Positions 7,079 to 8,036 of a stretch of 64,000 nt of DNA are shown one piece after another. The stretch covers positions 3,128,935 to 3,192,934 of the forward strand of contig NZ_CM001773.1 in NCBI RefSeq assembly GCF_000314895.2. The letters run 5' to 3'. How positions within the stretch are numbered: the stretch's first letter is position 1; every line of letters starts with the position of its first letter. The notes under the pieces were generated by a model. That model saw nothing but the letters and a program-made list of their open reading frames with translations, was not told where the DNA came from and did not search any database. The stretch comes from Providencia sneebia DSM 19967 (GTDB lineage: Bacteria; Pseudomonadota; Gammaproteobacteria; Enterobacterales; Enterobacteriaceae). Position numbers and translations under genes: made by a program.

Positions 7079-7834
7079 TTATGCTCCCAAGATTGAGCCT
7101 CCATCCACCACGATATCCTGCAATGTAATATGGCTAGCAAGATCAGAGGCAAGGAATAAAATAGTACTGGCAACCTCTTGCGGACGAGCAATTTTACCTA
7201 GAGGAATACCTAATTTGAACTGCTCGCAAAAACCATGAATACGCTGCTGTTCAGCATCACTATTACTCCATAAACTGCGCTGCATATCGGTGTCTGTTGA
7301 CCCAGGGGAAACAATATTGCAACGAACACCACTCCCAGCCAATTCCAGTCCAACTGTCAGCGTCAGACTTTTTAACGCAGCTTTAGATGCTCCATAAGCA
7401 CTCATACCGATACGTGGTATATGTGCTGCATCAGAAGCGACTGTTACAATAACTCCCCTTTGCTGCTTACGAAACTGTCCCATCGTTTGCTGGAACAGAT
7501 TAAATGCCCCACCAACATTAACGGCAAAAGTTTGCTGCCACTCTTCAGCGTTCAATGTGTCGGTAGCGCCTATGTGTAATATACCAGCAGCATTCACCAA
7601 TACATCTAACTGGTCAATTTGTTGTAATAGCCGTTGGCACACTTCTTTGACTTGTGCCGCATTCGACACATCCATTTTTTGAGTATTAAACGGATAATTT
7701 TCCAGCAAAAACTCGCGGTCAAATCCAATTACCTGCGCTCCAGCTTCTACAAATGCTAGCGCGCTCGTATAACCAATACCTTTACCCGCCCCAGTGATCC
7801 AGACAGTCTTACCTTGAAAATCAAATCGCGTCAT
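7079..7834 (-). CDS. entA: 2,3-dihydro-2,3-dihydroxybenzoate dehydrogenase EntA
   Basis: Oxidises 2,3-dihydro-2,3-DHB to 2,3-dihydroxybenzoate with NAD+, the last step of DHB synthesis. The 251-residue SDR has TGAGKGIG (nucleotide binding), NAAG, the catalytic Ser region VTVASDAAH and YGASKAA. It is very close to E. coli EntA over its whole length and appears intact. Its ATG overlaps by one base (TAATG) the TAA that ended the ancestral, full-length entB frame, so it was once translationally coupled. Now the entB product stops 200 bases earlier, which may weaken that coupling. Confidence 0.95.
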   Translation of the reverse strand: MTRFDFQGKTVWITGAGKGIGYTSALAFVEAGAQVIGFDREFLLENYPFNTQKMDVSNAAQVKEVCQRLLQQIDQLDVLVNAAGILHIGATDTLNAEEWQQTFAVNVGGAFNLFQQTMGQFRKQQRGVIVTVASDAAHIPRIGMSAYGASKAALKSLTLTVGLELAGSGVRCNIVSPGSTDTDMQRSLWSNSDAEQQRIHGFCEQFKLGIPLGKIARPQEVASTILFLASDLASHITLQDIVVDGGSILGA

Positions 7835-8036
7835 TATTTCATCTCACAGGAGAGTAATTTCCACCACGCATCAATCGTCGGATTTTTACTAGTACCTCAA
7901 AATTGATATCGCTATAAACTTTGCACCAATCGTTTGCCAAATCCATTATGTGAGCAGCATCCAAGCCGTTATCAATGAAATTTTCATTCTCAAACAGTAT
8001 GTTAGGTTTAACCTAAAGCGATAACACCAATGTTCA
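7834..8036 (-). pseudogene. Relic of the EntB aryl carrier protein (ArCP) domain
   Basis: Reading on in the entB frame past its TGA (8034-8036) gives sequence collinear with the E. coli EntB carrier domain: FENENFIDNGLDAAHIM then DWCKVYSDINFEVLV. A second in-frame stop (TAG) is at 8013-8015. The carrier serine of GLDS has become Ala (GCT at 7956-7958). One base is missing from a T-run at 7883-7887; in the shifted frame the domain ends NPTIDAWWKLLSCEMK, almost as in E. coli, with TAA at 7834-7836 overlapping entA. The domain can be neither translated nor phosphopantetheinylated as it stands. Confidence 0.92.

What the first reader, a model, noticed from the sequence alone, without database searches (positions are those of the whole stretch)
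7834..8036. EntB aryl carrier domain is a sequence relic with its carrier serine lost
The untranslated 200 bases after entB are collinear with the E. coli EntB ArCP domain. They carry TGA and TAG nonsense codons, Ser-to-Ala at the phosphopantetheine site and a one-base deletion in a T-run, yet still end with TAA overlapping the entA ATG. The isochorismatase half has been kept intact. Selection for DHB production has apparently outlived its loading onto EntB, a clean case of domain-level gene decay.
Basis: partly seen in the sequence, partly recalled or inferred. Interest (0 to 1): 0.82.

Follow-up and report, generated by a model that had tools for sequence, protein, structure and literature searches.

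The report
EntB that shed its carrier domain
In this likely Providencia genome the siderophore enzyme EntB keeps an intact isochorismatase half while its carrier half is a broken relic without the carrier serine, likely because the gene cluster it served probably supplied a separate carrier of its own, one that this genome no longer has.

Summary
Window 7834-8036 (-) is a true relic of the EntB aryl carrier (ArCP): two in-frame stops, a frame change, alanine for the carrier serine, and a TAATG overlap with entA. The isochorismatase half (218 aa) is open and conserved. (2) A species of the same genus (G021; EntB 217 of 218 identical to a P. stuartii protein) has a collinear, larger NRPS-PKS cluster that encodes a free-standing ArCP and a DHB-AMP-ligase-like protein; its EntB, of a different lineage, also lacks the ArCP, without a trace. 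(3) The window's copy of that cluster lacks large inner stretches, that carrier and ligase included, and our searches found no replacement in the 99.97%-complete genome. Best reading: the EntB carrier was made redundant by the cluster's own carrier and shed, twice in one genus; later the cluster itself collapsed here. Whether entCBA still makes useful DHB, or is merely not yet decayed, is open. Single-domain isochorismatases with a separate ArCP are known (S. maltophilia, Streptomyces); new are the intermediate stages and a cause.

The parts
8034..8690 (-). entB, isochorismatase half only (218 aa, ends at TGA at the start of the former ArCP)
   Evidence: ORF; PF00857 E 2.4e-39; best solved relative 2fq1 Isochorismatase (E. 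coli EntB) E 6.5e-116; 103 of 107 columns invariant in 80 relatives kept
7834..8036 (-). ArCP relic: piece 1 about 7884-7994 (frame -3), piece 2 about 7837-7905 (frame -2); two stops, frame change, GLDA at the carrier site; TAATG overlap with entA
7079..7834 (-). entA, 2,3-dihydro-2,3-dihydroxybenzoate dehydrogenase, intact (251 aa)
   Evidence: NF006074 415.6 bits over cut-off 312
8748..9950 (-). entC, isochorismate synthase, intact (400 aa); no entE between it and entB
   Evidence: NF011591 710 bits over cut-off 624; gap of 57 bases to entB
9958..9976 (.). Fur-box-like site upstream of entC (consensus recalled)
   Evidence: 1 mismatch on each strand, (9 matches in the window, 0.97 expected)
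6172..6906 (-). phosphopantetheinyl transferase (EntD-like), intact
   Evidence: PF17837 and PF01648; 47% to G021 copy
10147..11495 (-). MFS transporter split into two overlapping frames (frame change beside a T-run)
   Evidence: G021 protein matches 8-211 and 215-458; sequence
11639..13138 (-). PLP-dependent decarboxylase of the cluster
   Evidence: PF00282; 68% to G021
13203..13318 (-). scraps of an AmpG-like MFS gene that is whole in G021
13384..14601 (-). MFS transporter, intact, 79% to G021
14710..18217 (-). two half-size ABC transporters (14710-16563 and 16451-18217), intact, 81% and 77% to G021
18447..19151 (-). thioesterase lacking its N-terminus (G021 residues 44-256 only)
19096..21105 (-). 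NRPS-PKS remnant 2: scrap of the KS-AT-ACP protein (residues 854-907) followed by A-PCP of the last NRPS (residues 430-1042)
   Evidence: PCP serine kept (translation)
21117..22976 (-). NRPS remnant 1: condensation domain and first part of an A domain (G021 residues 1-613 of 1498)
   Evidence: the only condensation domain in the genome
23195..25282 (-). TonB-dependent siderophore receptor of the cluster, intact, 70% to G021

Best explanation
The 200 bases behind the intact 218-codon isochorismatase gene are the decayed aryl carrier domain of EntB, which likely became dispensable because the NRPS-PKS cluster that entCBA presumably served would have carried its own free-standing aryl carrier and DHB ligase, as the collinear cluster of a species of the same genus is predicted to encode. 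Shown: the relic, its lesions, the intact entC, entB isochorismatase and entA; a separate 73-aa carrier next to a DHB-AMP-ligase-like gene in G021; an EntB without ArCP in G021; no EntE and no spare aryl carrier found in this genome. Inferred: an Enterobacteriaceae-type entCBA was taken into the cluster, its carrier domain was redundant or did not fit this assembly line, the carrier serine was lost while the frame was still open (the state of P0002), then the frame broke; DHB was loaded on the cluster's own carrier in the meantime. Later, large deletions removed the NRPS-PKS core together with that carrier and ligase, so that today DHB could be made but not loaded by any route found here.
For: Relic. 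Serine: 80 of 80 relatives keep Ser, window has Ala, P0002 (301 aa, 199 of 218 identical, open frame) has Thr and no PF00550 hit at E up to 1. Relaxation in the shared stem: over 3160 pairs of 80 EntBs the ArCP is more conserved than the isochorismatase (mean +0.043, sd 0.046), for P0002 against the 80 it is less conserved (mean -0.143, highest -0.074); P0002 breaks 7 of 32 invariant ArCP columns but 3 of 107 isochorismatase columns, the window 4 of 107. Window and P0002 form one clade (100/100); G021's EntB sits apart, among full-length Xenorhabdus/Photorhabdus-type proteins, and well-supported branches force at least two changes of state (names). In the family search the own frame is 237 codons stop to stop, the other listed rows 284-358 (capped list). 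G021: free carrier PF00550 39 bits; ligase TIGR02275 546 bits, 38% to G011 EntE, E 1.4e-106. Own genome: PF00550 finds three carriers only, the NRPS PCP, an AcpP-like one and one that I take for a T3SS carrier (recalled), while the same search finds the free carrier of G021 and the EntB carrier of G011; best-scoring match to EntE 27%; one condensation domain, the remnant; ketoacyl synthases only of single-gene, FabF/FabB-like size.
Against: No DNA is at hand for P0002 and nothing shows that it lies in such a cluster. G021's ligase scores below the curated cut-off (546 against 724 bits), so its substrate is predicted only. That the window's cluster once held the free carrier is inferred from collinearity with G021 and from domains cut in mid-domain; an independent, always smaller cluster is not strictly excluded. 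NRPS remnant 1 is only 45-46% identical to G021's, so the ancestral module order here is uncertain. ArCP piece 2 (17 codons) is no more diverged than the isochorismatase (pN 0.073 against 0.099 to C. sedlakii). Citrobacter braakii's second EntB (L060) also has a fast ArCP yet keeps its serine. Ala and Thr differ, so two separate losses of the serine are possible. P0277, a third EntB-type protein without ArCP, has unknown context. G021's own line may have one frame break.
Confidence: 0.6

Rival explanations
1. DHB itself is the selected product: the cell keeps entC, entB isochorismatase and entA to release DHB as a weak iron chelator or signal, and the carrier and assembly line are gone because they are no longer used.
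For: entC, isochorismatase and entA carry no lesion in 2616 bp while the 203-bp ArCP has three (if lesions fell evenly, 3 of 3 in the ArCP: 3.7e-4; 2 of 2 stops: 5.2e-3). Fur-box-like site at entC. No ligase or aryl carrier was found.
Against: NRPS and thioesterase remnants, which are unlikely to work as a line, are equally free of small lesions over 4575 bp, so absence of lesions in entCBA may only mean that too little time has passed. The MFS gene next to entC is split.
Confidence: 0.25
2. The assembly line broke first and the ArCP decayed afterwards as one of many useless parts.
For: Both are broken today; large parts of the line are missing.
Against: ArCP relaxation and absence of the serine are shared with P0002, while the NRPS remnants show no small lesions; in G021 the EntB ArCP is gone with the line largely intact.
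Confidence: 0.12
3. Sequencing or assembly error: the lesions are not in the cell.
For: The ArCP frame change and the MFS break lie in or beside homopolymer runs; an o-succinylbenzoate ligase-like gene elsewhere in this genome is also split over two overlapping frames.
Against: Two stops and the alanine are substitutions; the ArCP pieces are also diverged (27 of 36 residues shared with P0002, 18 of 36 with C. sedlakii in piece 1), and an independent metagenomic relative lacks the serine too. No further carrier, condensation domain, PKS-type ketoacyl synthase or EntE turned up on any of the 4 contigs.
Confidence: 0.03

Closest known systems
E. coli EntB (bifunctional isochorismatase / aryl carrier), 2fq1
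   Same: Isochorismatase half full length, 78% identical to E. coli EntB; operon neighbours entC and entA, TAATG overlap with entA
   Different: No working ArCP, no carrier serine, entE absent, set beside an NRPS-PKS cluster instead of the enterobactin cluster
Stenotrophomonas maltophilia EntB/EntB' and Streptomyces DhbB/DhbG (PMC12210187: results part 1 of 2 and discussion read)
   Same: Isochorismatase as a single-domain protein with the carrier on a separate ORF; G021 has that arrangement
   Different: There the split is conserved across the species and no fused relic is described in what I read; the authors write that they cannot explain why the enzyme evolved to be single-domain. Here relic and serine-less intermediates are visible, and the window lacks the separate carrier too
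Vibrio anguillarum AngB/VabB (PMC5524678: passages only)
   Same: Two DHB systems in one cell with redundant functions; the VabB ArCP is reported not to replace the AngB ArCP, so a carrier tied to the wrong line can be useless
   Different: Both V. anguillarum proteins are described with both domains
Proteobactin and yersiniabactin-related systems of Proteus and Providencia (PMC7652902: passages only; Himpsl 2010 not held)
   Same: Siderophore systems of the same group of bacteria
   Different: Gene content of those clusters was not compared here; identity untested

Membership tests
EntB bifunctional isochorismatase/ArCP | N-terminal isochorismatase domain (PF00857) with conserved columns | tested here: met
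EntB bifunctional isochorismatase/ArCP | C-terminal carrier domain (PF00550) in the same open frame | tested here: not met
   218-aa ORF, two stops and a frame change in the ArCP region
EntB bifunctional isochorismatase/ArCP | phosphopantetheine serine in GLDS | tested here: not met
   GLDA; 80 of 80 relatives have Ser
Single-domain isochorismatase with separate ArCP (S. maltophilia EntB/EntB', DhbB/DhbG) | isochorismatase ends before the ArCP | tested here: met
   window 218 aa; G021 218 aa with no ArCP similarity left downstream
Single-domain isochorismatase with separate ArCP (S. maltophilia EntB/EntB', DhbB/DhbG) | a separate ArCP gene in the genome | tested here: not met
   none found in the window's genome; met in G021
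Gene relic (domain pseudogene) | homology beyond chance, disabling lesions, relaxed constraint relative to the rest of the gene | tested here: met
   pS saturated, so no dN/dS
DHB-only production module | DHB made and released as end product | not testable with these tools
   needs culture chemistry

The most novel reading that the evidence does not exclude
Redundancy un-fuses EntB: whenever a DHB operon is adopted by an NRPS-PKS line that brings its own aryl carrier and ligase, the carrier half of EntB is shed in a fixed order, carrier serine first, frame second, DNA last. Providencia shows this at least twice from different EntB lineages, with P0002, the window and G021 as three successive stages, and it is how single-domain siderophore isochorismatases arise.
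Probability: 0.4. Interest if true: 0.66.

Novelty: new variant of a known kind. Interest (0 to 1): 0.5.

Why it matters
It gives visible intermediates and a testable cause for the step from fused to single-domain siderophore isochorismatases, a step that the S. maltophilia EntB paper says it cannot explain (PMC12210187). It also shows a multidomain enzyme losing one domain while the other stays conserved, in a genome where the loss can be tied to a neighbouring redundant part, and it warns annotators that such a 218-aa 'EntB' does not mean enterobactin or any loaded DHB siderophore.

Tried and rejected
A plasmid carrying the cluster: megablast of 6000-25500 against 72,556 plasmid records gave no match; tblastn of the isochorismatase there gave 209 records, best full-length 78%, E. 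coli. The same cluster in the wider order, by NRPS remnant 1: 11 of 394 genomes at E 1e-60 or better, all but the own genome at 27-31% identity, so not the same cluster; in the genus only G021 has it at 46% (24 genomes). dN/dS: rejected as a measure because pS is 0.71-0.86; pN used instead, and in the functional controls ArCP pN is below isochorismatase pN in 5 of 7 pairs, above in L002-L014 and L002-L060. RNA families in 6000-26000: none; tRNAs in the window: none. A free carrier translated from the relic: by eye the frame after the second stop has no ATG, GTG or TTG before the carrier motif, and the serine is absent. The weak isochorismatase-family hit in G020 (32%) was left out of the EntB count. 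Tree: 38 rows picked by hand (21 of the 80 loci, the rest from two capped lists of 120 proteins, the window and G011); G011 and P0277 are long branches and their places unsure, the fork that puts the window beside Citrobacter and Escherichia is weak (45/69). Papers: searches on EntB with ArCP and pseudogene, standalone or domain loss, and on decaying siderophore clusters (listings seen) showed no report of this case; only openly licensed papers are held.

Full report
What is there. On the minus strand entC (8748-9950), the isochorismatase half of entB (8034-8690), a 203-bp stretch without a long frame (7834-8036), entA (7079-7834) and a phosphopantetheinyl transferase (6172-6906) follow one another. 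The 203-bp stretch is an ArCP relic: of 80 enterobacterial ArCPs, 80 hit it and 78 do so in two pieces in two frames, E from 1.6e-14 to 2e-7. For the Citrobacter sedlakii ArCP the pieces score 42.0 and 33.1 bits, the best of 500 shuffles 16.5. Two stops precede the carrier motif, which reads GLDA; 80 of 80 relatives have Ser there. The last frame closes with TAATG at the entA start.

The other half is sound. The 218-aa protein matches PF00857 (E 2.4e-39) and E. coli EntB 2fq1 (E 6.5e-116); of 107 columns that are invariant in 80 relatives it keeps 103. entC and entA pass their curated cut-offs. Lesions are not evenly spread: three in 203 bp of ArCP, none in 2616 bp of entC, isochorismatase and entA (3.7e-4 if even; 5.2e-3 counting only the two stops, since the frame change lies in a homopolymer run).

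The serine probably went first. Among 3,492 protein relatives (best 120 listed) only one listed protein lies close: P0002, a metagenomic 301-aa protein, 199 of 218 residues identical in the first half. Its ArCP frame is open, but the carrier position is Thr, PF00550 finds nothing at E up to 1, and 7 of 32 ArCP columns that are invariant in the 80 relatives are broken, against 3 of 107 in the isochorismatase. In the 80 EntBs the ArCP is on average the slower half (identity +0.043 over 3160 pairs), in P0002 the faster one (-0.143 on average against the 80). The relic pieces share 27 of 36 and 14 of 18 residues with P0002. Constraint on the carrier was therefore probably relaxed, and the serine lost, before the window and P0002 parted and before the frame broke; two separate later losses of the serine are not excluded, since one has Ala and the other Thr.

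Why the carrier could go. Of 24 genomes of the genus, EntB proper is found in the own genome, G011 and G021 (G020 has only a 32% hydrolase-type match). The genus is likely Providencia: G021's EntB is 217 of 218 identical to a protein named P. stuartii that stands for 47 contigs. G011 has entB with ArCP next to entE, entA and an EntF-length NRPS. G021 carries a cluster collinear with the window's 6-25 kb stretch: PPTase, TonB receptor, NRPS of 1498 and 2643 residues, a KS-AT-ACP protein, a free carrier of 73 residues with motif GLNS (PF00550 39 bits), a ligase closest to DHB-AMP ligases (TIGR02275 546 bits, below the cut-off of 724; 38% to G011 EntE, E 1.4e-106), a last NRPS with reductase, thioesterase, two ABC transporters, MFS genes, a PLP decarboxylase, and entA-entB-entC in the other orientation. 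That entB ends after 218 codons and the space before entA holds no ArCP trace (the best tblastn hits in the locus, E about 0.8, lie elsewhere). Its listed relatives are led by Xenorhabdus and Photorhabdus-type proteins with full ArCPs, while the window's EntB groups with P0002 and lies nearest Citrobacter and Escherichia ones (weak fork; 179 of 218 identical to C. sedlakii). So the ArCP was lost at least twice in one genus, both times beside this cluster type. A carrier and a ligase inside the cluster make EntB's own carrier, and entE, needless; that is inference, but it explains both absences. That an aryl carrier from one line may not serve another is on record for VabB and AngB (PMC5524678, passages).

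What is left here. Mapping G021 proteins on the window shows NRPS 1498 only to residue 613, of the KS-AT-ACP protein only 854-907, of the last NRPS only 430-1042, of the thioesterase only 44-256, and scraps of an AmpG-like gene; the free carrier and the ligase fall in the missing part. Domains cut in mid-domain point to deletion here rather than insertion there. The genome (99.97% complete, 4 contigs) has one condensation domain, the remnant itself, ketoacyl synthases only in frames of 400-450 residues, three carriers none of which is an aryl carrier by context (the T3SS assignment of one is recalled), and no EntE: the best-scoring match is 27% identical and FadD-like by its surroundings. So no route to load DHB was found. 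The NRPS and thioesterase remnants have no small lesion in 4575 bp, which suggests that the collapse of the line is younger than the loss of the EntB carrier. Hence the intactness of entCBA does not by itself show selection for free DHB: it can also reflect selection while the line still worked. The Fur-box-like site at entC (consensus recalled) fits expression, no more.

Weighing. Best: carrier made redundant by the cluster, serine first, frame next, then collapse of the cluster (0.6). Rivals: DHB as the kept product (0.25), line lost first (0.12), error (0.03).

Place in the known. Single-domain siderophore isochorismatases with a separate carrier are known from S. maltophilia and Streptomyces (PMC12210187). 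G021 has that layout; the window fails it because no separate carrier is left. The gain is in the intermediates and in a cause that can be tested.

Noticed in passing
window 16451-18217: The cluster's ABC transporter has metagenomic relatives of up to 93% identity and one of 85% named Gilliamella apis (bee gut), closer than the one named Providencia vermicola at 78%: the cluster may move between Providencia and Gilliamella-type bacteria.
   Followed up: partly
window 43260-47073: A FhuA/FoxA-like TonB receptor next to an enterochelin-esterase-like protein (216 bits, cut-off 222): possible use of foreign siderophores.
   Followed up: no
L060 10001-10855: Citrobacter braakii has a second EntB whose ArCP is much more diverged than its isochorismatase but keeps the serine.
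   Followed up: no
P0277: A third EntB-type protein without ArCP (213 aa, 12 members, metagenomic), context unknown.
   Followed up: no
L093 1010-2424: An o-succinylbenzoate ligase-like gene of the own genome is split over two overlapping frames on one strand: a real lesion or an assembly indel.
   Followed up: no
L128/L095, G021:C1:954385-955666: A condensation-like protein of the G021 cluster lies in two overlapping frames (212 and 221 residues): G021's line may itself have one break.
   Followed up: no
window 25901-25922: Overlapping Fur-box-like sites upstream of the TonB receptor.
   Followed up: no
L082, L097 and L098 (G011): Runs of a repeated peptide 'VHCRIGSLE' in open frames beside entA and the PPTase gene of G011 look like CRISPR arrays, with frames beside them that resemble type I-F Cas proteins (recalled, not searched): the enterobactin genes of G011 seem flanked by a CRISPR-Cas locus.
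   Followed up: no
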